Origin: Catonia carolina
Lineage: Eukaryota > Arthropoda > Insecta > Hemiptera > Achilidae
Direction of reading: 5' to 3'
Length of the DNA stretch: 64,000 nucleotides
Assembly: GCA_035578175.1 (NCBI GenBank)
Contig: JAQMRL010000003.1
Span: 24,854,172-24,918,171, forward strand
The translations under genes were made by a program, and so were the position numbers. Shown one piece after another: positions 2,702 to 63,566 of the stretch. Each line of letters opens with the position of its first letter. The stretch's first letter is position 1. The notes below the pieces were generated by a model. The model was given only the letters and a program-made list of their open reading frames with translations. It had not been told where the DNA came from and did not search any database.

Positions 2702-3648
2702 AAAAATCTGGTGTGAAACACACACAACTTTCTCTTGCCTTCACAAGTAATTAACAATAAACCTAACATTAGTAATAAAAAATTAGAAATAAACAAAAAT
2801 CTAACCTCAATAAACATAACCTAATTTTAATCATGAGTGAAAGACGCAAAATGAAAATCAACCTCAGTTTGGTTTAAAAATATGGAAAGTCACTCTTTCA
2901 CGCTAAACTAGGCTCTGTAGAGAAACATTCTCAAAATAAAAGTTGTAGATCTTTTAATTTCCTAAAAATTTGATTAAATACACTTTTGTCATAAAATCCT
3001 GAAAGGCCAGAATCTTTAAAAAAATCTTTTTTAAAAAAAAAATTTTTTACACGTTTTTGTGAGAAAAAAACAGAAAATCGCTAATTACCGCTAAACTAAG
3101 CATTATGCATTATACAAAAAAGTGTTTAGAATAAAAGTTGTAGGATTTTAAATTCTCTACATTTTTTATTATAAATTTTTGGGCTAAAATGCATAATAAA
3201 GCCGTAATCCTAAAAAAACAATATCTTTACATAAAAACAGCCTCACCAAGAATATCAGCAAACATGGCGCCTATCCTATCTTGTAGAGCATAAAAAATTT
3301 AGTAAACCAGGCGATTTTAAAAAAAAGTTGTAGGACCCATTTTTGAGAAAATTGCAAAAAAGTGAAAAATTACACGAATAAACTACTACTTCCGGTTGAT
3401 CGATTTTGATGAAAATGTTTGTGTTGGGTCTGGTAGTGGTATGTAACTTAAGTTTTAAGTTTCAAGTTTGTACGATGTTCCGTTCTTGAGATATTATGTT
3501 TACACACAGACCAATCGCTAAAAACATGTTTTTTGGGTTCAGGGGGTCTGAAAACGTGTAGATCCGGTGAAAACTCGATTTTGAAAAATCGACATGAAAA
3601 CAATACTTTCCTTCCTATATATTCATAGAGGCAAGAGAAAGTAAAAAA
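2702..3648 (-). mobile_element. Helentron/DINE-1-like repeat, copy 1 (full length)
   Basis: This is a member of a ~0.93-kb family seen about eleven times in the window. In its own 5'-3' direction it has: a 5' subterminal repeat ACTTTCTCTTGCC; a GT/CA microsatellite ~110 bp in; two ~175-bp internal units containing a CTACAACTTTTAT word; the inverted subterminal repeat GGCAAGAGAAAGT; and a terminal hairpin GTGTGAGTGTTTCACACC followed by AGATTTTT. That plan matches non-autonomous Helentrons (HINEs, DINE-1/INE-1). No protein of its own is evident. This copy has almost no microsatellite left (only ACACACA near 3505). Confidence 0.7.
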
Positions 3649-4000: not shown

Positions 4001-4940
4001 TTTTTACTTTCTCTTGCCTATATGAATATATAGGAAGGAAAGTATTGTTTTCATGTCGATTTTTTGAAATCGAGTTTTCACCGGATCTATACGTTTTCAG
4101 ACCCCCTGAACCCAAAAAACATGTTTTTAGCGATTGGTCTCTGTGTGTGTGTGTGTATACAAAATATCTCAAGAACGGAACATCGTACAAACTTGAAACT
4201 TTAAACTTAAGTTACATACCACTACCGGACCCGACACGAACATTTTCATCAAAATCGGTCAAACGGAAGTAGTAGTTTATTCGTGTGATTTTTCACTTTT
4301 TTGCGATTTTCTCAAAAACGGGTCCTATGATTTTTTTTTAAAATCGCCTGGTTTACTAAATTTTTTATGTTCTACAAGATAGGATAGGCGCCATGTTTGC
4401 TGATATTCTTGGTGAGGCTGTTTTTATGTAAAAATATTGTTTTTTTAGGATTACGGCTTTATTATGCATTTTAGCCCAAAAATGTATAATAAAATATGTA
4501 GAGAATGTAAAATTCTACAACTTTTATTTCAAACATTTTTTTGTATAACGCTTAGTTTAGCGGTAATTAGCAATTTCCTGTTTTTTTCTCACGAAAACGT
4601 GTGAAAAATCTATTTTTTTAAGATTTCGGCCTTAGAATGCATTTTACGACAAATGTGTATATAATTAAATTTATAGAAAATTAAAAGATCTACAACTTTT
4701 ATTTAAAGCATTTTTCTCCACGGAGCCTAGTTTAGTGAGAAAGAGTGATTTTCCATATTTTTAATTCAAACTGAGGTCGATTTTCATTTTGGTTCTTTCA
4801 CTCATGATTAAAATTAGGTTATGTTTATTGAGGTTATTTTTTTGTTTATTTCTAATGTTTTATTACTAATGTTAGGATTATTGTTTATTATTTGCATTGG
4901 CAAGAGAAAAGTTGTGTGAGTGTTTCACACCAGATTTTTT
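4001..4940 (+). mobile_element. Helentron/DINE-1-like repeat, copy 2 (full length)
   Basis: This copy begins at TTTTTACTTTCTCTTGCC (4001..) and ends with GTGTGAGTGTTTCACACC and AGATTTTTT at 4940. The (GT)n tract is at 4141..4156. The 3' subterminal repeat carries one extra A (GGCAAGAGAAAAGT). It lies head-to-head with the copy at 2702..3648. Confidence 0.75.
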
Positions 4941-6695: not shown

Positions 6696-8579
6696 TCACT
6701 TGGATGAACTTAACCATGGAAAATTATTTGAAGAGCTTCCTGAAGTATCATATTCAGCAAAGGTGTCATCATCCGGATAAACTTTTATGAAATAATTTTT
6801 CGGGTCATAATTTTTTTCAGTTTTATTGTTTATATCTTCTTCAATTGCAGTACTATTATGAACACCACTGTCCATAAAAATTCCGGAACTATTATCAACA
6901 GAACTTTCATTTTTGGAATCGTAATACTTAATTATATCTTCAGTATTTTCCAAAACACTTACTTCAGTTTCATTCTTTACATTGGTATTTACAAGTGATT
7001 CAAATGACTTGTTTCCAGTTGATATTAGTTCATTCTTTGTTAAATCGAAAGAATCACTTTTAATATTGGTATCTTTATTAGTTGTTTCGTCAATGGAATC
7101 TTGGTTATTTGTGGCAGTTTCGTCAGTTTTAATCTCCTTATTTATATTCATTTTATATTCAATTTTATTCTCTTCATGATTCTGAAAAGAATGATTTTCA
7201 TCTGATTGTAGTTCTTTGTTTTTATTATCATTTTCAATAACTTCATCTCTAAAAATGGCAATCTCATTACCTTTGTTTTTTTCTATAGAAACGACACATG
7301 CTTCATGTTTGTTATCATCTTCAACAGTTCTTATATTTTCCATTGGTTTCATTCTTTTGAATTTGGCTTCATTAGTATTTGAATTATCATTTTTTTCAGT
7401 AACTTCTTGAGAATCTGCGCAATTTTTAATTGGAGATTCTTTTGAAAAAGAAATTTTACGTTTATTGTTGTTTTGGATTGTGAAATTATCTTTGGTGTTA
7501 ATTATTTTATTTGAATCTTTACTGCTATTTGAATTAACATTTAATTGATTGTTTTCCTTCTTTTTAAAAGATGGTATGTATTTTTTATTTTGAATTTTGT
7601 CAGTATTTTGAGTTGATGATCTGCCTTGTGAAGATATTTGTTCAAATTTTTTGATTAATGATTGTACTGCAAATACTTGTTTGACTTCTGAAAATAATTT
7701 TCCTGATCTCACATTATGGGTATAATTATTTCGGTTCTGGTTTGGTCCCGTTTTGGAAATTTTTTCTGACTTATATGTAGTTAGAAGTTTTTCACTCTTT
7801 ATAATTTTAACTGGTTTTACTAAAGCAGCTGGTATACTGGTAATTGCTTCCATAGTAATGGTGTGTTTATCAGTCATTTTTTTTGCAATAATATTTCCAG
7901 CGTACCGTGTAGGAAAATTATTGGTTTTTGGAGTGCCCCAGTTATTTTTTTTTACGTAGTTATGTTTATCTTTACGAATCTTTCTTGGTGTTGAACATGA
8001 CCCTAATTTGTAAACCAGCATTTCAGAAAAGTTGTCATTAGAAACTTTTGAATGATGGATAATAAAAGGGAGTCTATCAGAATTTGTTGGTGTTTTATGA
8101 GGAAATCTTTTTTTATCAATAACTGGTTCTTTTGGGCTGTCATTCTGTTCTTTTTCTAACGTACTACCTTCACTTTCTTTTGATGAAAATGATTCAATAT
8201 TTTTTTCCTTATTTAACAGCTCATTATTTGATTGTTTTTCAACATTAATATGAACAGATTCATTGTCAGAAACATTTGTTTCTATTTCCTCAACAGCTGC
8301 AGTTGAACACGATGGATCAGCAGAAGTAACTTTAGTAAAAGCAGGGACTGGTTTTTTGATAGTTTTCTTATTATTAGATGGTTTAGAATATTTTTTTTTA
8401 GTAATACCTTTGCTATTGTTCTTGTTTTGTCCATTCCTGTTTTTTACTGGAGTCTGTTGGTTTAGTGTGCTCTCAATTCTTTTTGGAGTAGAACGAAGTG
8501 TGTAAGGGTTTCCAGTTTTTTTTGGAGTAGAACGTAGTGCGTAATTAGATGTAATATTAACTTTCTTGTTTCTATCCAT
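6696..8579 (-). CDS. Single-exon gene for a 627-residue disordered, probably nuclear protein of unknown function
   Basis: The start is taken at the ATG at 8579. The frame opens ten codons earlier (8609), but the intron at 8596..8651 ends inside that stretch, so the upstream ATG would be spliced away. The protein is low-complexity and rich in Lys, Asn, Ser and Glu, with no folded domain I recognise. It starts with two copies of an LRSTPK motif (residues 25-30 and 28-33 of their units, at about 15-34). It has many S/T-P sites (QTP, KTP, STP, GTP, SPIK), a KEN tripeptide at 341-343, a KISF motif at 375-378 that fits an RVxF phosphatase-1 docking site, and basic clusters. The C-terminus is acidic and then aromatic (FIKVYPDDDTFAEY, NFPWL), the part most likely to be conserved. 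Long uninterrupted coding without stops, plus a spliced 5'UTR and a poly(A) signal, argue for a real gene. A cell-cycle or chromatin role is only an inference from short motifs. Confidence 0.75.
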   Translation of the reverse strand: MDRNKKVNITSNYALRSTPKKTGNPYTLRSTPKRIESTLNQQTPVKNRNGQNKNNSKGITKKKYSKPSNNKKTIKKPVPAFTKVTSADPSCSTAAVEEIETNVSDNESVHINVEKQSNNELLNKEKNIESFSSKESEGSTLEKEQNDSPKEPVIDKKRFPHKTPTNSDRLPFIIHHSKVSNDNFSEMLVYKLGSCSTPRKIRKDKHNYVKKNNWGTPKTNNFPTRYAGNIIAKKMTDKHTITMEAITSIPAALVKPVKIIKSEKLLTTYKSEKISKTGPNQNRNNYTHNVRSGKLFSEVKQVFAVQSLIKKFEQISSQGRSSTQNTDKIQNKKYIPSFKKKENNQLNVNSNSSKDSNKIINTKDNFTIQNNNKRKISFSKESPIKNCADSQEVTEKNDNSNTNEAKFKRMKPMENIRTVEDDNKHEACVVSIEKNKGNEIAIFRDEVIENDNKNKELQSDENHSFQNHEENKIEYKMNINKEIKTDETATNNQDSIDETTNKDTNIKSDSFDLTKNELISTGNKSFESLVNTNVKNETEVSVLENTEDIIKYYDSKNESSVDNSSGIFMDSGVHNSTAIEEDINNKTEKNYDPKNYFIKVYPDDDTFAEYDTSGSSSNNFPWLSSSK

Positions 8580-8595
8580 TATGTTGAAATAGTGT

Positions 8596-8651
8596 CTGAA
8601 ATATAACAAACAGATAAAATACAGATAATATACTATTAATTTTTTTCTTAC
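8596..8651 (-). other. 56-bp intron in the 5'UTR of the disordered-protein gene
   Basis: On the minus strand the donor CTG|GTAAGA is at 8651 and the acceptor TTATATTTCAG is at 8596. The acceptor is preceded by a pyrimidine-rich tract, and a TTAAT-type branch candidate lies inside. Splicing joins an upstream untranslated exon (8652 upward) to ACACTATTTCAACATA directly before the ATG at 8579. The length is typical of small insect introns. Confidence 0.6.
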
Positions 8652-10220: not shown

Positions 10221-10224
10221 ATTG

Positions 10225-10757
10225 TGTAACGAACCAAATCATCTACAGTAAAGTCTGTTTATGTTTGCTATAGTTGAGTATATAAACAAACTCCAGCTGA
10301 CTGGAAAGTAAACATTTTTTGAAACTATTTAATTTATATTAAAGAAAAAAGAATATTGAAAAGAGAGTTATTTACTGGTTGCTAGGAAACTAAAGAAGAA
10401 AAATGATGAATTTTGTAAAAGAATATGGTGACTGTGGTTCCAGACATCGAACAGGATGGATGGTCCACAATCTCAGTGAAAAAAGTTTAAGTTAAAATAA
10501 ATTTAAAAGACGATACGATGTAAAGTGAAAGTATATTTAAAAACGACGTATAATTTAAAATGAACGGGACATATTAACATTAAAAAATATTAAAATTAAA
10601 CCAGTGAAAGTTTAAAATATAATAAAACATTTGATATAACGTACATGCTGAAAAAATATGATAAATCATTAAATATAATTCATACAAGATAATTGAGTTT
10701 ACTTTTATTCACAGCAAATTCAGTATTCAACGTATGTGGAGTATTTAGTACACCACA
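10225..10757 (+). repeat. 5' LTR, 533 bp
   Basis: The LTR begins TGTAACG and ends ACCACA, with the TG..CA ends typical of LTRs. A TATATAAA box at 10279..10286 could direct transcription. An AATAAA at 10621..10626 is a candidate poly(A) signal, giving a plausible U3-R-U5 order. Its length is identical to that of the 3' copy. Confidence 0.9.
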
Positions 10758-10761
10758 AATT

Positions 10762-10779
10762 TGGCATCAACTTGTGAGG
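10762..10779 (+). other. Primer-binding-site candidate
   Basis: TGGCATCAACTTGTGAGG starts with TGG, the complement of a tRNA 3' CCA, and lies 4 bp after the 5' LTR. The priming tRNA was not identified. The leader repeats related words: ACAAATTTGGCA recurs at 10797 and, mutated, at 10873. The later two are followed by ACCCTAGATGTGGGGAAA, so the exact site is uncertain. Confidence 0.45.
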
Positions 10780-10958
10780 ATTAGATCGTTTTACCACAAA
10801 TTTGGCAACCCTAGATGTGGGGAAACATTCACGGTTTTTGGATTGGAAATATTGGTAATAAAATAATTAAACAACAAATTTAACAACCCTAGATGTGGGG
10901 AAAGGAAGATATAAATCAAATTTATTAACTAATTCACGAATTTTTTTTAAAACAAATT

Positions 10959-12956
10959 ATGTCAGAGGCTGATAAAAAGAAAATTGTAGATCTTCGTGTC
11001 ACAGACTTAAAGTTGGAGCTCAGAAAGCGTGGTATGGACAGCAAAGGTGTAAAAACAGCACTCATGGAGCGACTACGAAGCGTTTTAGCTGAGGAAGGAC
11101 AAGATCCAGATTCCTGCCTATTTGAGATCGTCTCACCAACAACAGAAGCGGATCAGGTTCCAATTACATCTGAAGAGGGTCGAAAGGATGAGCTGACTGG
11201 AAGGGATGAGTTGTCACAGGAAGAAGAAGAGGGTCGAAAGGATGAGCCAGACCAGATAGCATTACCAGGACCAAGTCATCTCAACCAATTAACAGGTTTA
11301 GTTCAGACTTCAGGTGGAGGAAAGAACGTGAGTAATGATAATAATAGTGATGATCATCAAAATAACATGAATACAGGTATGCTACAACAACTAATGTTGT
11401 TAGTCAGCAATTTAGGCAGTAAAATGGATGAACATAAAAATGAACTAAACAGAAAAATGAATGAAGGTTTGAGCAATTTAGACAGTAAAATGGATGAACA
11501 TAAAAATGAACTAAACAGAAAAATGAATGAAGGTTTGAGCAATTTAGACAGTAAAATGGATAGACAGGAGGAAAGGTTAGGAAAGAAAATAGATGCTTTA
11601 GATTGTAGGCTGGATAAGCAAGAGAGAGATATTAAGCAGCTTAGGGAGGAGATGAGGCAAGATTGTTTGGAATTAATTGAACAAGTTAGATCAGAGTTTA
11701 AGAAAGATTTTGAAAATAGGATAACGAGTAGTGAGAATGAAATAAGTTTATTGAAAGTAGTTGTGGAGAACCAAGCTGTTAATGTTGTAGAAGAATTTAA
11801 AAGCTATAATAATAAAATAAATAAAGTAAATACAAGAGTAGATAAAATTGTTAATGATATTAAAGTAAACAATAAAGAATTAGCAGAAGTAAAAGATAAG
11901 GTGTCAGAACAAAAGGGAATTATGGGAAAGGTTACAGATAATTTAGTACAACATGAGAAAGCTGTGGTAGGAGTAGCTGAGGATTTAAAGTTTTTGAAAA
12001 AAGAATTGGATAAACATATAGAACAAGGAGGTATAAAGAATAGTTACTATGATGGTGTAGGTAATAGTATTAAGATAAAATTTTCAAATAATAATCCGAT
12101 GGAGTTTATTAGTTCACTTGAATATCAAATTAAAATAAATGAAATTAAAAGATGGAAGATGATTAAGAATATAATTAATGATAGTATGATGGATAATGTA
12201 GGAGGTAGCTCTTGGTGGATATATGTTAGAGAAAAAATAGACAATTTGGAGAAATTTATTGATAAATTTAAAGAAAAATTTTGGAATGATGGTAGGCAAG
12301 CAGAAGTAAGACAAGATTTACAATTTGGTAGATACTATAGTAATAAACATACAAGAATGTCAATTTATTTCATGAATAAGATAAATAAGGCAAAATATTT
12401 AGAGCCTAGATTGTCAGAACCAGAATTAGTTAAACTGTTAAGTAGGCATTTTAATAATACAATAAATAGAGCTAGGATAATTGGGTGCATAAGTGATGTG
12501 GAAAGTTTTGTTCAGTTGTTAGATGAGATAGAAAATTCAGGTATATGTAGGGAAGTGGAGAAAATAGAGAACAGACAAGATAATTGTGAAGGTAAAGAAT
12601 GGAATACTTGTAATCAAGACTCAGGTTTTGACAGAGTGGACAATAAGGGTTATAAAAATGTATTTAATGATAATAGAAGAAATTACCCATTATATAATGC
12701 AGATAGGGATACTTATAGAAATAATAATGACAGGCGACCATTTAATAATCAAGGTAGAGGTAATAATAATAATAATAATGGAGGTTACACCAATAGAGGC
12801 CAAAATAGTAGATTTCACTACAACAGTAGAGGTGAAGGTAATAGTTATGAAAATAAATATGAAAATAACCCTAGTAAAGATAAAAGGACCGACATTAAAG
12901 TAAATGCAATTGAAATTCAGGCAGATGTTCATAAGGAAGATGAACATTTAAATTAG
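10959..12956 (+). CDS. Gag polyprotein with N-terminal SAP domain, 665 residues
   Basis: Structural protein of the LTR element, expected to build the particle around the RNA. Residues ~10-44 fit a SAP helix-turn-helix (VTDLKLELRKRGMDSKG then ALMERL), a nucleic-acid-binding motif unusual for Gag. Residues 60-130 are acidic and disordered. Residues 140-355 form a long coiled coil that includes a tandem 24-residue duplication (GSKMDEHKNELNRKMNEGLS unit, at ~153-200). Residues ~365-525 resemble the retrotransposon Gag capsid core (WWIYVREKI.. FWNDGRQAEVRQDL.. ARIIGC). The C-terminus (~575-640) is rich in Asn, Arg and Gly with RGQ/RGEG repeats in place of CCHC zinc knuckles, none of which is present. 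The poly-Asn run comes from an (AAT)n microsatellite. The frame is intact and the start is the first ATG after the leader. Confidence 0.85.
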   Translation: MSEADKKKIVDLRVTDLKLELRKRGMDSKGVKTALMERLRSVLAEEGQDPDSCLFEIVSPTTEADQVPITSEEGRKDELTGRDELSQEEEEGRKDEPDQIALPGPSHLNQLTGLVQTSGGGKNVSNDNNSDDHQNNMNTGMLQQLMLLVSNLGSKMDEHKNELNRKMNEGLSNLDSKMDEHKNELNRKMNEGLSNLDSKMDRQEERLGKKIDALDCRLDKQERDIKQLREEMRQDCLELIEQVRSEFKKDFENRITSSENEISLLKVVVENQAVNVVEEFKSYNNKINKVNTRVDKIVNDIKVNNKELAEVKDKVSEQKGIMGKVTDNLVQHEKAVVGVAEDLKFLKKELDKHIEQGGIKNSYYDGVGNSIKIKFSNNNPMEFISSLEYQIKINEIKRWKMIKNIINDSMMDNVGGSSWWIYVREKIDNLEKFIDKFKEKFWNDGRQAEVRQDLQFGRYYSNKHTRMSIYFMNKINKAKYLEPRLSEPELVKLLSRHFNNTINRARIIGCISDVESFVQLLDEIENSGICREVEKIENRQDNCEGKEWNTCNQDSGFDRVDNKGYKNVFNDNRRNYPLYNADRDTYRNNNDRRPFNNQGRGNNNNNNGGYTNRGQNSRFHYNSRGEGNSYENKYENNPSKDKRTDIKVNAIEIQADVHKEDEHLN

Positions 12957-13973
12957 GTACAGGCGTGCAAAAAATTCAGCAACCAGTTACAAATTTATCC
13001 CGTGCGTCTGACAATGGTGTAGGGTTAAATGAAATTAAAAAGGAAGTTATTAAATTTAAAAATAAAAAGGTAAATAAACAAAACAGTAATAATATTGAAT
13101 GTTTAACCTTAAATGAAACTTGTAAGGAAGATAATGATAAAAAATTAATTGATTTTATATTTAATGATAATTTAGGTGATGAATTGTTACAGGAGGAGAC
13201 ATTAGTTACTGAAAATAATGATATAATCGAAAAAGAAATAAAATTAGTTGAAATTAATATTAATATAAAGGATAGGATGTTTAATGTTTTGTGTGACACA
13301 GGTAGCAACATTACTGCAATTAGCCAGGAGTTTTTAATACAGTTAGAGGCTGAGATGAATGAAAGTTTTTCTAGGTTATCAGTCAAAGCTATTACTATAA
13401 TAACTGCAGCAGGTAAAAAAAGATCTGGTATAAACAAACAAGTAATAATTCAGTTTAAAATAGGTGATACTACATGTATTCATACATTTTATGTGATAAA
13501 GGGCTTGAATGTTGATATTTTGTTGGGATGTGATTTCTTTTGCAAAAATAAAGTTAAGTTAGATTTTCAAAATTATTTATTCTGTGTAGGGAAAGATAAG
13601 GTTAGTTTTTCTGAAAACAAGAATGTAGAGATACATAGTTGCAATTTAAAAATATTTAATGTAGATGAAAAACAGAATAAGAGTAATGGGAAAGAAAATG
13701 CTAATTATTTTGAAAATTATAAGGATATAAATAAAAATAATATTGAAAATATAGGTAAAACTAATAATCATGTAGAAAACAATGAAGTAACCTTTGATAA
13801 TACAATAAATAGTGTGGTAACTAATAATAATTGTACTGAGATGAAAGTAAAACAAAGTTCAATTGATAACAGTAAAGGTGTGGATAATTTTCCAATTGAT
13901 TTAGGTCTGAATAGTGTCAAACAGTTTTTTAATTCTCCTATAACAAGTTATATAACAAATGATAGGGTAAGAT

Positions 13974-14009
<36 letters not shown>

Positions 14010-14299
14010 GACAGTACAATGAAACAGAGGATGATAGAAATAGTACTTCAATGTCAAATTTAGTTAAGAAAAATGTAATTAATAAACTCAATATTGGTAG
14101 GAATTTCCAAACCAAAAGAATTAACAATCTTGGTAATCTTAATGAATTACTAATGAGCTTTGTTAAAGATAATATACCTATAGTAAATATCGATGCTAGG
14201 TACACTAATCATGATAAATGTGAGAAATTTATGTATATAATGTTGGTTATGTTTGTTGTTAAGGTTTTATTTTATATTTTATTAGTTGAGAACCAATAA
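12944..14299 (+). CDS. Protease frame of Gag-Pro, reached by -1 frameshift
   Basis: The frame is open from 12944 and has no early ATG (an ATG-like start at 12965 is actually GTG), so translation most simply enters from gag by a -1 shift. A retropepsin is clear: FNVLCDTGSNITAIS with catalytic DTGS at 13295..13306, a flap-like stretch (~residues 140-165), and the second hallmark NVDILLGCDFF about 75 residues on. It should cleave Gag as a dimer. After the protease come ~230 residues rich in Asn and Lys, including a poly-Asn run (~338-347, an AAT microsatellite). The C-terminal 23-residue segment is strongly hydrophobic (MYIMLVMFVVKVLFYILLV). No reverse transcriptase follows. The role of the hydrophobic tail is unknown. 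Confidence 0.85.
12947..13010 (+). promoter_or_regulatory. Programmed -1 ribosomal frameshift signal
   Basis: The heptamer TTTAAAT (12947..12953) is positioned as T TTA AAT in the gag frame, the last two sense codons before the TAG at 12954..12956. Slipping back one base leads into TTA GGT ACA, the open protease frame. A 6-nt spacer (12954..12959) separates it from a predicted 9-bp stem, CAGGCGTGC (12960..12968) with GTGCGTCTG (13002..13010), three of whose pairs are G-U. Loop bases 12993..13001 can also pair with 13022..13030 with one mismatch, so a pseudoknot is possible. X XXY YYZ sequence, spacing and structure all fit known Gag-Pro frameshift sites. Confidence 0.8.
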
Positions 14300-14647
14300 A
14301 CATAATGTTTATCAGTAATGTTTATACATTCTAATGTTTGATAGGGTTATGTTCAATTACGTTATGTTTACAGTTTATAGTTTATGGTTTATTTGCATAG
14401 TTCATCTATTGATATGTCTATATTGTTCGTTAAGTAGTTATTTTGTTAGTGATTTGTTTATATAATTTGTTAAGTTATATTTAATTATATTAGTGTTGAT
14501 TGAGTAATAAGTTGTAAAGTTACCTAGCACTATAAGTTTTAAATATTTGGGCCATAATTAGTACATTTAAATTTATCAATCAAATTCAAAATTTTAGATA
14601 TAATTCTAGTAAAGGGCTAAATTTTTCTTTGATTTCAAAATTTAAAT
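14300..14647 (+). other. Non-coding 3' region of the LTR element
   Basis: About 350 bp of T-rich sequence between the protease stop and the polypurine tract, where a pol gene would normally have been. I find no reverse transcriptase or integrase remnant in it, so the pol deletion, if there was one, removed everything. Confidence 0.6.
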
Positions 14648-14654
14648 GGGGGGG
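14648..14654 (+). other. Polypurine tract candidate
   Basis: A run of seven G (GGGGGGG) preceded by AAAT ends 4 bp before the 3' LTR and would prime plus-strand DNA synthesis. The intervening TATT makes the junction slightly atypical. Confidence 0.55.
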
Positions 14655-14658
14655 TATT

Positions 14659-15191
14659 TGTAACGAACCAAATCAGCTACAGTAAAGTCTGTTTATGTTT
14701 GCTATAGTTGAGTATATAAACAAACTCCAGCTGACTGGAAAGTAAACATTTTTTGAAACTATTTAATTTATATTAAAGAAAAAAGAATATTGAAAAGAGA
14801 GTTATTTACTGGTTGCTAGGAAACTAAAGAAGAAAAATGATGAATTTTGTAAAAGAATATGGTGACTGTGGTTCCAGACATCGAACAGGATGGATGGTCC
14901 ACAATCTCAGTGAAAAAAGTTTAAGTTAAAATAAATTTAAAAGACGATACGATGTAAAGTGAAAGTATATTTAAAAACGACGTATAATTTAAAATGAACG
15001 GGACATATTAACATTAAAAAATATTAAAATTAAACCAGTGAAAGTTTAAAATATAATAAAACATTTGATATAACGTACATGCTGAAAAAATATGATAAAT
15101 CATTAAATATAATTCATACAAGATAATTGAGTTTACTTTTATTCACAGCAAATTCAGTATTCAACGTATGTGGAGTATTTAGTACACCACA
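14659..15191 (+). repeat. 3' LTR, 533 bp
   Basis: Same length and ends as the 5' LTR; by eye it differs at one position (G at 14676). The TATATAAA is at 14713..14720 and the AATAAA at 15055..15060. The ATTG target duplication follows at 15192..15195. Confidence 0.9.
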
Positions 15192-15304
15192 ATTGTTAAA
15201 AAACAGCTGTTTGAAATTACCAGCTGATGTAGATTTTCAAGCTGTAAGTGTTTTCTTCAAATACATCCGTTCAAAATGTGTATACATTTCTCTGAGACAC
15301 TCGG

Positions 15305-32787: not shown

Positions 32788-33710
32788 TTTTTACTTTCTC
32801 TTGCCTATATGAATATATAAAAAGGAAAGTATTGTTTTCATGTCGATTTTTCGAAATCGAGTTTTCACCGGATCTATACGTTTTCAGACCCCCTGAACCC
32901 AAAAAACATGTTTTTAGCGATTGGTCTGTGTGTGAACAGAATATCTCAGGAACGGAACATCGTACGAACTTGAAACTTAAGTTACATACCACTACCGGAC
33001 CCGACACGAACATTTTCAACAAAATCGGTCAACCGGAAGTAGTAGTTTATTCGTATAATTTTTCACTTTTTTGCAATTTTTTCAAAAACTGGTCCTACGA
33101 TTTTTTTTAAAATCGCCTGGTTTACTAAATTTGTTATGCTCTACAAGATAAGGTAGGCGCCATGTTTGCTGAAATTCTGCGTGAGGCTGTTTTTACGTAA
33201 AAACATTTTCTTTTTAAGAATGCGGCTTTAATATGCATTTTAGCGCAAAACGTTATATAATAAAAGTTGTAGAGAATGTAAAATTCTACAACTTTTAATT
33301 CAAACATTTTTTTGTATAACGCTTAGTTTAGCGGTAATTTGTGATTTTCTGTTTTTTTCTCACGAAAACGTGTGAAAAATCGATTTTTTAAAGATTTCGG
33401 CCTTAGAATGCATTTTACGACAAAAGTGTTAAATTAAAATTTATAGGAAATTAAAAGACCTACAACTTTTATTTTCAGCATTTTTCTCTACAGAGCCTAG
33501 TTTAGCGTGAAAGTGTGATTTTCCGTTTTTTTTAAAGCCAAATTGAGTTCGATTTTCATTTTGCGTCATTCACTCATGATTAAAATAAGGTTATGTTTTT
33601 GAGGTTAGTTTTTGTTTATTTCTAATATTTTATTAATAATGTTAGGTTTATTATTAATTATTTACATTGGCAAGAGAAAGTTGTGTGAGTGTTTCACACC
33701 AAATTTTTTA
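32788..33710 (+). mobile_element. Helentron/DINE-1-like repeat, copy 5 (full length)
   Basis: Intact subterminal repeats (ACTTTCTCTTGCC at 32793.. and GGCAAGAGAAAGT at 33669..33681) and the 3' hairpin ending at about 33700. The microsatellite is minimal (GTGTGTGTG at 32925..32933). One open frame of 125 codons crosses it and is shared by other copies, but it has no recognisable domain. Confidence 0.75.
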
Positions 33711-53197: not shown

Positions 53198-54134
53198 AAA
53201 AATCTCGTGTGAAACACTCCCACAACTTTCTCTTGCCAATATAAATAATTAACAATATAACCTAATATTAGTAATAAAACATTAGAAATAAACAAAAAAC
53301 TAACCTCAATAAACATAACCTTATTTTAATCATGAGTGAAAGACGCAAAATGAAAATCGAACTCAGTTTGGCTTAAAAATACGGAAAATCACTCTTTCAC
53401 GCTAAACTAGGCTCTGTAGAGAATAATGTTCTAAATAAAAGTTGAAGATCTTTTAATTTTCTATAAATTCGATTATATACACTTTTATTATAAAATGCAT
53501 ACTAAGGCCGAAATCTTAAAAAAATCGATATTTCTCACGTTTTCGTGAGAAAAAAACAGAAAATCACTAATTACTGCCAAACTAAGCACTATACAAAAAA
53601 ATGTTTGAAATAAAAGTTGTAGGTTTTTAAATTCTCTACAACTTTTATTATATAAATTTTTGCGCTAAATTGCATATTAAAGCCGTAATCTTAAAAAAAC
53701 TTCGTTTTTACGTGAAAACAGCCTCACCAAGAATTTCAGCAAACATGACGCCTACCCTATCTTGTAGAGAATAAAAAATTGAGTAAACCAGGCCATTTTT
53801 AAAAAAATCGTAGGACCAGTTTTTGAGAAAATCACAAAAAAGTGAAAAATTACACGAATAAACTATTACTTTCGGTTGACCGATTTTGATGAAAATGTTC
53901 GTGTCGGGTTTGGTAGTGGTATGTAACTTAAGTTTCAAGTTCGTACGATGTTCCGTTCTTGAGATATTTTGTATACACACACACACACACACACAGACCA
54001 ATCGCTAAAAACATGTTTTTTGGGTTCAGGGGGACTGAAAACGTATAGATCCGGTGAAAACTCGATTTCGAAAAATCGACATGAAAACAATACTTTCCTT
54101 CCTATATATTCATATAGGCAAGAGAAAGTAAAAA
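53198..54134 (-). mobile_element. Helentron/DINE-1-like repeat, copy 9 (full length)
   Basis: The copy runs from the 3' hairpin side at 53198 to AGGCAAGAGAAAGTAAAAAG at 54134, with a (CA)n tract at 53974..53995. It abuts copy 10 head-to-head without spacer. Confidence 0.75.
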
Positions 54135-55608: not shown

Positions 55609-56531
55609 CGAGTTCTGGCTATTAAATAACAAGACTGATGTAAAAAATTTTAATTTTATACATAATCACTTATTGTCACAATCAATATACACTCCTTCTC
55701 TATCCCTACAACGCTCCATGCAAATTTTCCATTGTTAGAAACAGTGCTGGAAGTCATCTTCTGTCAGCTCCTTCAAGACAAATTGTTGAAATGAAGCTCG
55801 CAAAAGTGATTGTACTGACACTTTGTACGCGATTGAAAATGACCCAAATTTTTTGGAAACTATAATAACATGTGATGAAACGTGGTTTTTTACTTATGAT
55901 CCGGAAACAAAGAGCCAATCCTTGCACTGGAAAAGCCGAAATTCACAGAGAGCCAAAAAAGCTCGAATGAGCAAGTCAAAATTTAAAGCAATGATGATTT
56001 TTTTTTTTGATATCCATGTGATTGTGTACCTTCACTGGGTTCCTGAAGGTCAAACAATTAATCAATATTTCTACCTTGAGGTACTTTCTAAACTACGTCA
56101 AAAATGATTAAGGAAAAATGCCCCGAAATGTGGAAGGACAAATCATGGGTTCTCCACCAAGACAATGCGCCACCTCATTCCACGTTATCTGTCAAGAGGT
56201 TCCTAGCCAAGTACAGCATCTCAGTGTTTGAACATCCAGCTTATTCACCAGATCTTGCACCATGTGACTTCTACCTGTTCCCTAAGGTGAAATCTGCATT
56301 AAAAGGGACAAGATTTAAGTCTGTGGAAGCTGTAAAAGAGAAAGCGGCACGTGTCCTGAAGGAGCTGACAGAAGATGACTTCCAGCACTGTTTCCCACAA
56401 TGGAAAATTCACATGGAGTGTTGGAGGGATAGAGAAGGAGTGTATATTGAAGGTAACAATAAGTAATTATGTATAAAATAAAAATAAAATTTTTTACAGC
56501 TTCAATCTCGTTATTTAATAGCCACACCTCG
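55609..56531 (+). mobile_element. Mariner with an inverted duplication of its right end, in GTPBP2 intron 1
   Basis: TA flanks both sides (55607..55608, 56532..56533). The left 172 bp (55609..55780) is an imperfect inverted copy of the right 180 bp (56352..56531), including both terminal bases (CGAG..GGCTATTAAATAAC) and transposase C-terminal coding sequence. The normal left end and the transposase N-terminus are gone. The two arms differ at many sites, so the rearrangement is not recent. Confidence 0.75.
55823..56466 (+). pseudogene. Mariner transposase catalytic-domain remnant
   Basis: Reading 55823..56107 contains IITCDETWFFTYDPETK (first catalytic Asp). After a frameshift at about 56104 it continues with SWVLHQDNAPPHS (second Asp) and HPAYSPDLAPCDFYLFPK (third Asp), then the C-terminal tail to the stop at 56466. 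The Asp spacing fits DD34D mariners. The N-terminal helix-turn-helix region is missing, replaced by the inverted copy of the 3' end, so no functional transposase can be made. Confidence 0.8.
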
Positions 56532-61892: not shown

Positions 61893-62808
61893 CGAGGTCT
61901 GTCCAATAAATACGCGAACTGAGCCCATAAAAACTTTATTTTGCAAAATTTAGTCTACATCAATTTTGTCCCCTTCAAAGTACTCTCCATTTGTTGCTAT
62001 GCACTTATTCCATTTTCTTTTCCACTGTTTAAAGCACCCTTGGAAGTCCTCAGCAGTTAGGCTTTTTAGTGTTATCGTCGTTCTTGCTTTATTGTGTTTA
62101 AATCTTCCCAGTGATGTCCCCTCATCACATTTTTGCATTTTGGGAATAGGAAAAAGTCGCAGGGGGTGATATCTGGTGAAGAAGAAGGATGATCAAGGAT
62201 GGTGATTGAATTTTTGGCCAGAAACTGGCGAACAATCAATGCTGAATGTGCAGGTGCATTGTCATGGTGAAGGATCCATCCATCACCTTGACAAATGTAG
62301 TGTGCACTGTTGATTTGCCTAGATTCAGTTCATCAGCTATCATTCGGACAGTTTTTCGACGATCAGTAAGGACAAGGGACCGCACATGATCAATGTTGTC
62401 GTCCAACACAGGTGGTTGAAGGTTGTCCCGCCTTGCATCATCCGTGGCGTCTTGTCGGCTATCTTTGAAACGTTTAATCCATGTGAAAATTGATGTTTTC
62501 TTCAGAGCATTATCATCGTAAACAGCTGTCAACATTTCAGTAATTTCTTTATAACTTTTACTGCACTTCACCAAAAACTTGATATTGATTCGTTGCTCTG
62601 TGATTTCGTCAGTTTCCATTTTCGACAAACAGTAAAAACAAGGACAACAGAAACTAACATAACTAGCACCATATGCACAGTTTAACAATCTGCCAAGCAC
62701 TGACGGCTTATTAGGAATCAGGCAACTAGCGCTGCCAGTGGGTAGGACTGTAGTCCGTGTCATGGGCGCTAGCTTGCACAAGTTCGCGTATTTATTGGAC
62801 AGACCTCG
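61893..62808 (-). mobile_element. Mariner with perfect inverted ends, internally deleted, 916 bp
   Basis: The terminal repeats are identical over at least 28 bp (CGAGGTCTGTCCAATAAATA and onward), flanked by TA within TATA. The perfect ends suggest relative youth. A full mariner is about 1.3 kb, so ~0.4 kb is missing from the middle. The coding strand is minus. Confidence 0.8.
61950..62619 (-). pseudogene. Internally deleted mariner transposase
   Basis: Starts at the ATG at 62619 (METDEITEQRINIKFLVKC) with the helix-turn-helix region KCSKSYKEITEMLTAVYDD.. FTWIKRFKDSRQDATDD and the second one RSLVLTDRRKTVRMIADELN. Near 62285..62305 the reading jumps to sequence for the HDNAPAHS (second Asp) and SPDITPCDFFLFP (third Asp) blocks in another frame, so the first catalytic Asp region is deleted. 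The C-terminal part reaches a stop at 61950. Confidence 0.8.
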
Positions 62809-63566
62809 TATATGTATTTAAGTATAAAAATACCTTTTCTTAAATTGTGAATAACTTTATTTCCGTGTATAAAAAAAGTACGGCTCGCGTATCCAGGCTT
62901 CCCAAACAAACACGACTAAAAACATGCAATACTGGTCATTGATGGTATACACTGATACGCAATACACTGAATTCGAATCCGGTTGCGGATAACCGAAACT
63001 TTTCAATACACTGGTTTCGAATTCGGCCGCAGATGATCAAAAAACTTATGTCCATAAAGCCAGGTTACGAACATAAATTTGATTGGACTGTGAATCCTAA
63101 TTAATACTCTATTTACCTGTACTGGCATGGAGCGAGGTAATTAGTAGACTGTGTATGTTCTGTACGCGTTCCAAAAGGCAACTCTTCTGTCCTAAAAGCC
63201 TGGTCCGTGTAGATTCCGTTCTGCTGCAAGTAGGCGGCAGCACTAGTCGAATGCGAGGGAAGCCCGTAAGTTTAAAGTTCTAACAACTCTGATTAGTGTC
63301 TTTTACACCTCTATCTTCTGTTCTTAAATGATTCAGTCATTTAATTGGCTGACCATGTCATAAGAAACAGAACTATTTATTTTAGCCCTGCATGACCTTA
63401 AGTTGTTGCAAATGAATTTGTGTTAAGGAAAGATTGAGCTTGTTTTACAGACTCTATGTAGAAGTGTACTTCACAGAAATTTTTTAAACCAAGTTGAGAA
63501 ATCCAAAAAAAATTAAGGAATAGTCTGTTTTTGTGATTTTTGTTATAATTTTAATATTTTTTTCAG

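What the first reader, a model, noticed from the sequence alone, without database searches (positions are those of the whole stretch)
10225..15191. Recent, structurally complete LTR retrotransposon that encodes only Gag and protease
Both frames are intact, the LTRs differ at one visible base, and PBS, PPT and ATTG target duplication are present. Nevertheless no reverse transcriptase, RNase H or integrase is encoded. An element that keeps an intact Gag-Pro with a working frameshift signal while borrowing Pol is unusual, since most non-autonomous LTR elements keep no protein or only Gag. It suggests a stable lineage that parasitises or cooperates with a Pol-bearing partner.
Basis: partly seen in the sequence, partly recalled or inferred. 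Interest (0 to 1): 0.8.

Follow-up and report, generated by a model that had tools for sequence, protein, structure and literature searches.

The report
Recombinant Gag-protease retrotransposon lacking reverse transcriptase
This is a very young jumping element that makes its own coat protein and protease but no copying enzymes; nearly identical full-length relatives that carry those enzymes sit in the same genome, and the element looks like a mosaic of such a relative and a third, smaller kind of element.

Summary
In detail: an intact LTR element (533-bp LTRs, one difference, ATTG duplication) with a 665-aa Gag, a -1 slippery site plus a predicted pseudoknot, and a retropepsin ORF, but no RT, RNase H or integrase. 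The own-genome search adds three things. (1) It is not a lone derivative: of 21 loci taken by LTR similarity (window included), 7 have this Gag-Pro layout, 6 are Gag-Pro-Pol with ~99% identical Gag-Pro, 6 encode one ORF joining Gag's N-terminus to a C-terminal 'tail', 1 is a mosaic, 1 unresolved. (2) The 'protease ORF' is protease plus that tail: the layout is a recombinant of the pol-bearing and tail-bearing kinds, with three different junctions, all in frame. (3) Tail-bearing elements are numerous and diverse, many with open frames, and shuffle Gag N-termini. Pol-bearing copies are the obvious supplier of RT and integrase; supply in trans is inferred, not shown. Gag-Pro-only elements are known from wheat (PMC9744471), so the kind is known; the tail, the repeated origin and the shuffling look new. 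No evidence of mobility or protein function was obtained.

The parts
10221..10224 (.). target site duplication ATTG, 5' copy
10225..10757 (+). 5' LTR, TGT...ACA, 533 bp; TATATAAA at 10279, AATAAA at 10496 and 10621
10758..10903 (+). leader with PBS-like units (AATTTGGC...GTGRGG); number of units and the LTR/leader border differ between copies
   Evidence: primer tRNA not identified
10959..12956 (+). Gag ORF, 665 aa
10989..11078 (+). SAP domain of Gag (PF02037, 27.3 bits, cut-off 23.9)
10959..11719 (+). GagN module (SAP plus coiled-coil-like region), the part of Gag kept by most of the tail-bearing single-ORF elements seen
   Evidence: coiled coil inferred from weak, below-cut-off matches to helical families
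11720..12953 (+). rest of Gag, presumed capsid and N/R/G-rich nucleocapsid-like part (no zinc knuckle found)
   Evidence: capsid identity inferred
12947..12953 (+). -1 slippery heptamer TTTAAAT
12960..13030 (+). predicted H-type pseudoknot: stem 1 12960-12968/13002-13010, stem 2 12993-13001/13022-13030
   Evidence: 2 of 400 shuffles and 0 of 88 control windows as strong; stem 1 re-predicted with different base pairs in related families, (no shuffles made there)
12953..14299 (+). ORF2 read after -1 shift: protease followed by tail
13253..13540 (+). retropepsin domain (PF13975, PF13650, PF08284, PF00077 above cut-off)
13676..13681 (+). approximate junction: pol-bearing-type sequence to the left, tail-type sequence to the right
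13682..14299 (+). tail: N-rich stretch, NIDARYxNHDKC motif shared by most tails, hydrophobic C-terminus
14231..14287 (+). hydrophobic C-terminal segment (19-residue mean KD 2.63)
14400..14658 (+). 3' region shared again with pol-bearing copies (98.8-99.2% in the 6 copies)
14644..14654 (+). polypurine tract AAATGGGGGGG
14659..15191 (+). 3' LTR
15192..15195 (.). target site duplication ATTG, 3' copy

Best explanation
A young, semi-autonomous Ty3/gypsy-type element. Its LTR drives an RNA from which Gag is made; ribosomes slip -1 at TTTAAAT before a pseudoknot and some make Gag-Protease-tail. It makes its own particle protein and protease but takes RT, RNase H and integrase from pol-bearing copies of the same family, whose Gag and LTRs are almost the same, so the two RNAs can be packaged in one particle. 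The layout arose by template switching between a pol-bearing RNA (LTR to protease) and the RNA of a third element that encodes only GagN-tail (tail to 3' end), at least three times. Shown here by sequence: layouts, copy sets, shared LTRs, the different junctions kept in frame, young age, the predicted frameshift signal. Inferred: frameshifting in cells, supply of Pol in trans, mixed particles, template switching as the cause, and function of the tail (perhaps a membrane anchor for a GagN- or Gag-Pro-linked protein).
For: Own-genome LTR search: 40 scored matches of 776 candidates, most pairing into size classes. Of 21 loci (20 fetched plus window): 7 Gag-Pro-tail, 6 Gag-Pro-Pol, 6 GagN-tail, 1 mosaic, 1 unresolved. 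Pol-bearing L009 carries RVT_1, RNase H, integrase H2C2 and rve in gypsy order; from 10793 to 13721 the window matches it at 99.4% in DNA, then L009 has 3.1 kb of other sequence (pol and downstream), then 99.2% again from 14400. Three Pro-to-tail junctions: window/L010/L020/L025; L021; L012/L026. L015 is a further GagN-to-tail junction. All four are in frame. Nearest 5' LTR relatives cross layouts: L012 (Gag-Pro-tail) and L014 (pol) 0 differences, L015 (GagN-tail) and L016 (pol) 0. Core LTR pairs: 0 substitutions in 16 of 19; window 1, L014 2, L025 2; small indels in L015, L021, L025. Pseudoknot reached by 2 of 400 shuffles and re-predicted with changed stem-1 pairs in related families. Protease dN/dS 0.09-0.47 in 11 comparisons of the window with copies under 97% identical, three of them with saturated dS.
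Against: No expression, particle or mobility data. Two of 7 Gag-Pro-tail copies have a broken gag frame (L025 split, L021 one stop), so self-supplied Gag is not needed by every copy. The 7 copies are too alike in Gag-Pro to show selection acting within this layout; the low protease dN/dS comes from comparisons with pol-bearing or decayed copies. Among 18 further Gag loci no other Gag-Pro-tail copy was seen. The pseudoknot test was written after the stem had been noticed. Single-sequence structure models were unusable and Pfam finds no capsid domain.
Confidence: 0.78

Rival explanations
1. A simple deletion derivative: a pol-bearing copy lost pol by one internal deletion and was copied a few times.
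For: Such deletions do occur in the related family 2: L067, L068, L069 and L073 share one RT-to-integrase deletion, L064 has another, L070 a third.
Against: Here pol is replaced, not only removed: window 13722-14296 has close relatives in the GagN-tail elements but in the pol-bearing copy only a weak 65.6% match after pol; there are three different junctions.
Confidence: 0.07
2. Chance recombinants with no role: the Gag-Pro-tail copies are by-products of template switching, carried along as RNA, and their proteins do not matter.
For: All seven look young; two have broken gag; tail dN/dS is only weakly below 1 (median 0.79 in 125 pairs), and one of three tail pairs set beside the neutral simulation (L020-L018, 0.82) is not below its 5% point (0.73). 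The mosaic L011 has a further junction, tail to protease end, that does not join one frame.
Against: ORF2 is open through protease and tail in 7 of 7 copies, and the four recombinant junctions into the tail (three from protease, plus L015) are all in frame, about 1 in 81 if frame did not matter (my arithmetic). Neutral simulation gives a median dN/dS of 1.15-1.17; window-L020 (0.51) and window-L011 (0.60) lie below its 5% points (0.53 and 0.73). No stop arises in 31% of runs at the smaller and 2.5% at the larger distance.
Confidence: 0.3
3. The tail is the remnant of an env-like third gene; GagN-tail and Pro-tail are fusions that keep a membrane anchor from it.
For: A decayed sequence similar to the tail's 3' half lies after pol in L009 (65.6% over 244 columns, E 8e-5), with stops in all frames in the 3 pol-bearing copies translated; hydrophobic C-terminus in 29 of 32 ORFs.
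Against: The DNA match was made with the low-complexity filter off, and simple AAT repeats scored as well in the same run; the protein-level match is weak (E 0.083). No Pfam match above cut-off for the tail; no env-sized ORF after pol in the related families L060-L062. T-rich DNA gives hydrophobic peptides easily, and no composition control was made. The reverse direction, coding sequence gained from 3' UTR, fits as well.
Confidence: 0.28

Closest known systems
Wheat RLG_Sabrina_SA and RLG_WHAM with partner RLG_Wilma (PMC9744471; passages and section 2.8 read)
   Same: Gypsy elements that encode Gag and protease but no RT or integrase, multi-copy, with a likely autonomous partner; the authors call Sabrina_SA semi-autonomous.
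   Different: There the partner shares only PBS, LTR ends and a promoter motif; here partner and element share ~99% of LTR and Gag-Pro. Here pol is replaced by a tail from a third element, at several junctions.
Einkorn RLG_Quinta with RLG_Cereba (PMC11302176; passages read)
   Same: Non-autonomous element thought to supply Gag to an autonomous one; Gag regions exchanged by recombination.
   Different: Gag and wheat centromeres; no protease or tail mentioned in the passages seen.
TR-GAG elements of plants (seen in a search listing only; definition recalled)
   Same: Gag kept, pol lost.
   Different: No protease (recalled); the small elements here keep mostly only Gag's N-terminus plus a tail.
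CM-gag of Culex pipiens (title seen in the reference list of PMC3286476)
   Same: Insect element reported to contain only a gag gene.
   Different: Not compared by sequence; the title mentions no protease.

Membership tests
LTR retrotransposon | paired LTRs with target site duplication | tested here: met
   window ATTG; 4-bp duplication clear in 17 of 19 copies, L012 ambiguous, L015 not found
LTR retrotransposon | PBS next to 5' LTR complementary to a tRNA 3' end | tested here: inconclusive
   TGG-starting units follow the LTR; primer tRNA not identified; self-priming not supported
LTR retrotransposon | polypurine tract before 3' LTR | tested here: met
Ty3/gypsy (Metaviridae) group | pol order protease, RT, RNase H, integrase in the autonomous members | tested here: met
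   pieces of one copy, L009
Ty3/gypsy (Metaviridae) group | placement by RT phylogeny | not tested
   no reference RT set was aligned
Semi-autonomous Gag-Pro element (as RLG_Sabrina_SA, RLG_WHAM) | intact Gag and protease, no RT or integrase | tested here: met
Semi-autonomous Gag-Pro element (as RLG_Sabrina_SA, RLG_WHAM) | several copies with that layout | tested here: met
   7 of 21 loci, (gag broken in 2 of the 7)
Semi-autonomous Gag-Pro element (as RLG_Sabrina_SA, RLG_WHAM) | autonomous partner with matching LTR ends and PBS region, active at the same time | tested here: met
   activity inferred from young LTR pairs
Semi-autonomous Gag-Pro element (as RLG_Sabrina_SA, RLG_WHAM) | partner enzymes used in trans | not testable with these tools
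   needs expression or particle data
Simple deletion derivative | internal region is a subset of the full-length element | tested here: not met
   tail closely related to GagN-tail elements and only weakly similar to the pol-bearing copy

The most novel reading that the evidence does not exclude
The tail-bearing elements are an old guild of LTR parasites that live on one adaptor protein: a Gag N-terminus (SAP and coiled coil) fused to a membrane-anchoring tail, with no capsid, protease or polymerase. They keep the tail and repeatedly exchange the Gag N-terminus so that it matches the Gag type of the pol-bearing elements present, and now and then capture the partner's whole Gag-Pro, giving elements like the window's. 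Gag N-terminal type would then be a recognition tag under frequency-dependent change.
Probability: 0.3. Interest if true: 0.78.

Novelty: new variant of a known kind. Interest (0 to 1): 0.63.

Why it matters
It is a natural, apparently recent experiment in one animal genome: pol-bearing, Gag-Pro-tail and GagN-tail elements with nearly the same LTRs and young insertions. It makes questions about cheating versus cooperation among retroelements testable (who supplies Gag, protease and polymerase; what decides which RNA is packaged), and it suggests that a Gag N-terminal domain and a hydrophobic tail can by themselves be worth keeping for a parasite.

Tried and rejected
Protein searches with Gag (whole, and residues 360-545) and with the protease region found nothing in the 5.8-billion set. 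Viral contigs (Gag, ORF2), genome contigs (Gag) and plasmids (window 12039-13800) gave no relative. PDB sequence search gave SAP-domain chains (best E 0.0022) for Gag and one chain at E 0.05 for ORF2. Single-sequence structure models of the protease and presumed capsid regions were poor (best model mean pLDDT 74 with helices first, not a retropepsin order, the other four models 40-46; and 45) and were not used. Self-priming was tested and not supported (p 0.88). Ordinary nested folding after the slippery site is not better than shuffles (z 0.11); only the pseudoknot test stands out, and it was written after I had noticed the first stem. Stacking energies in it were typed from recall. In the cross-family pseudoknot run L052 and L056 dropped out because no heptamer lies near their gag end, and no shuffles were made. 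The tail as a plain leftover of pol was rejected. An env-sized third ORF after pol was looked for in three related families (L060-L062) and not found. Papers: ten searches; with 'SAP domain', retrotransposon, gag and insect none; without insect four, judged irrelevant from the listing only; semi-autonomous, LTR retrotransposon, gag, protease, insect none; phrases for Gag-protease-only elements none. PMC2533021 passages gave no Gag-Pro-only family.
Full report
WHAT IS THERE. The element at 10225-15191 is real and well formed: 533-bp LTRs with one difference, ATTG on both sides, purine tract, TATA and AATAAA signals in the LTR. Gag is 665 aa with an N-terminal SAP domain above Pfam's cut-off, a region with weak matches to helical families, and an N/R/G-rich end without a zinc knuckle; a capsid domain is presumed, not shown. 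TTTAAAT sits directly before the gag stop and is the only in-phase heptamer of its kind in gag. Six nucleotides that include the stop, then a 9-bp stem, an adjoining second stem of 8 pairs and loops of 24, 0 and 11 nt make an H-type pseudoknot; its summed stacking energy was reached by 2 of 400 shuffles and 0 of 88 control windows. I noticed the stem before I wrote the test. In the window's own subfamily the same method predicts the same structure or a slightly changed one; in L054 and L055 stem 1 stays and stem 2 differs; in more distant families (L057, L058, L059, L066-L073) stem 1 lies at spacer 6-7 and is built of different base pairs (no shuffles there). ORF2 holds a retropepsin and then a tail that ends in a hydrophobic segment. 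No RT, RNase H or integrase was found.

COPIES IN THE SAME GENOME. G000 has 1.47 Gb in 142 contigs. The LTR search scored 40 of 776 candidates, so all counts are of the best matches only. Of 21 loci (20 fetched plus the window): Gag-Pro-tail 7 (window, L010, L012, L020, L021, L025, L026; gag broken in L021 and L025, ORF2 open in all 7); Gag-Pro-Pol 6 (L009, L014, L016, L019, L023, L024; ORF2 1128-1149 aa, open in all 6); GagN-tail 6 (L013, L015, L017, L018, L022, L027; one ORF of 437-525 aa); mosaic 1 (L011: GagN-tail, then the end of protease and pol-sized frames); unresolved 1 (L028, one LTR). Domains in pol were tested in L009 only, piece by piece. Core LTR pairs have no substitution in 16 of 19 copies. 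Target duplications are clear in 17 of 19: 6 directly and 11 after the LTR is followed further; L012's is ambiguous and L015's was not found.

THE WINDOW LAYOUT IS A RECOMBINANT. Against L009 the window matches at 99.4% from 10793 to 13721 (the last ~40 bases loosely), then nothing close until 14400, then 99.2% to the LTR. The part between belongs with the GagN-tail elements. The junction differs: window, L010, L020 and L025 share one; L021 runs further into pol-type sequence; L012 and L026 further still; L015 has its own GagN-to-tail junction. Each keeps the frame. In L011 a further junction, from tail to protease end, does not join one frame. Nearest 5' LTR relatives often belong to another layout, with 0 differences for L012/L014 and L015/L016. 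This is what template switching among co-packaged RNAs would give; gene conversion is not excluded.

MORE GAG LOCI. A protein search with the Gag part after GagN gave 102 matches (101 scored of 706 candidates): 25 nearly full-length at 91-100% identity and many at 49-62% with long open frames. The 1.8 kb after Gag was read in 18 of these not fetched before (15 at 79% or more, 3 more distant): RT follows protease in 14 (in L051 and L056 broken or short); L049, L052, L054 and L055 gave no RT match; none gave a tail match. A nineteenth, L065, gave part of the protease only. So within the sample the Gag-Pro-tail layout is confined to the 7 young copies.

A SECOND CASE. In a related family (49-50% identity in this part of Gag) 9 copies were looked at: 3 run on into RT, 4 share one RT-to-integrase deletion that ends ORF2 at 315 aa, L064 has another deletion that stays in frame (415 aa), and L070 lost pol after protease. 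The Gag part searched has no stop in all 9, with frames of 639-643 aa. Gag-Pro layouts thus also arise by deletion, and one such deletion has multiplied to at least 4 copies; there the downstream frame is not always kept, unlike the tail cases.

THE TAIL-BEARING LINEAGE. The tail protein search gave 157 matches (150 scored of 210 candidates; not every match was listed). By hand count 56 listed rows have no stop and an open frame of 397-525 aa, with identities from 100% down to 54%; they include the 7 Gag-Pro-tail copies, the 6 GagN-tail copies and L011. Many other listed rows are short or hold stops. I fetched 19 further tail loci, chosen mostly because one search showed an open frame, so their intactness is not a rate: 17 hold one ORF of 394-458 aa with GagN before the tail, L086 holds a shorter one (287 aa; one search shows a stop in its tail match), L088 none. 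GagN and tail are shuffled: L082 and L083 share tails at 97% but GagN at 60%; L074 and L084 share GagN at 93% but tails at 57%. Of 20 GagN of such elements set against 11 Gag N-termini from loci of the Gag search or L009, some fall close to the window family's type (up to 95%, L013; L075, L078, L082 85-89%), five to the type of L102 (78-95%: L074, L080, L083, L084, L091), several lie between (63-78% to the window family: L018, L076, L077, L089, L090, L092), and L079, L081 and L085-L087 are near none of the 11. L102 lies in a locus with RT downstream (L047) whose later Gag is 95% identical to the window's while its GagN is only 47% identical. Median dN/dS is 0.38 for GagN (111 pairs) and 0.79 for the tail (125 pairs), using pairs with dS 0.1-1.0 out of 153; pairs are not independent. 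Low GagN values may reflect selection in the pol-bearing elements from which GagN may be captured. Set against a neutral simulation (median 1.15-1.17), window-L020 (0.51) and window-L011 (0.60) lie below the 5% points, L020-L018 (0.82) does not. The C-terminus is hydrophobic (15-mer KD 1.6 or more) in 29 of 32 ORFs although its sequence differs; base composition may contribute and was not controlled. A decayed relative of the tail's second half lies after pol in L009 (low-complexity filter off, simple repeats scored as well) and reads with stops in all frames in the three copies translated.

HOW IT LIKELY WORKS. The window element can supply Gag and protease, and pol-bearing copies with the same Gag and LTRs can supply the rest; the near-identity makes mixed particles easy to imagine. 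That is inference. The tail may anchor Gag-Pro or GagN to a membrane; that is a guess from one hydrophobic segment.

KNOWN OR NEW. Gag-Pro-only gypsy elements with likely autonomous partners are described in wheat (PMC9744471; passages and one section read), and einkorn RLG_Quinta is said to supply Gag to its partner and to have recombined Gag regions (PMC11302176; passages). My ten paper searches, of open papers only, listed no animal case with this tail or with GagN-tail elements; I read passages of four papers only. I therefore call it a new variant of a known kind. On re-checking, the selection of the 19 tail loci and the unfiltered DNA match weakened two arguments slightly; I lowered the best explanation from 0.80 to 0.78 and the env reading from 0.30 to 0.28.

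Noticed in passing
window 10758-10903 and the leaders of L009-L026: The leader is a variable row of ~40-bp PBS-like units (ACAAATTTGGC...CTTGTGGGG). [quoted passage not shown]) as if priming had used different units.
   Followed up: partly
L064, L066-L073 (contigs C1, C13, C58, C80, C111, C133): A related family has its own pol-less Gag-Pro copies: four share one RT-to-integrase deletion, two have others, three of nine keep RT.
   Followed up: partly
L009 versus L102: Within one pol-bearing family Gag's N-terminal 253 residues are only 47% identical while the rest of Gag is 95%: a strongly diverged or swapped module.
   Followed up: partly
L011: Mosaic copy: GagN-tail ORF followed by the end of protease and further long frames where pol lies, with identical core LTRs.
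   Followed up: no
window 11406-11537: 66-bp tandem duplication (98%) inside gag's helical region.
   Followed up: no
window 55790-56466 and 62236-62817: Mariner-like transposase pieces (Transposase_1 and Mos1-type HTH above cut-off; DDE_3 below).
   Followed up: no
window 6696-8609, minus strand: 637-aa open frame, lysine/asparagine-rich, no Pfam match.
   Followed up: no
window, e.g. 32924-33429 / 53479-53984 and 3104-3511 / 4147-4554: 124 inverted-repeat pairs found; the 25 longest are 81-98% complementary and belong to several dispersed repeat families.
   Followed up: no
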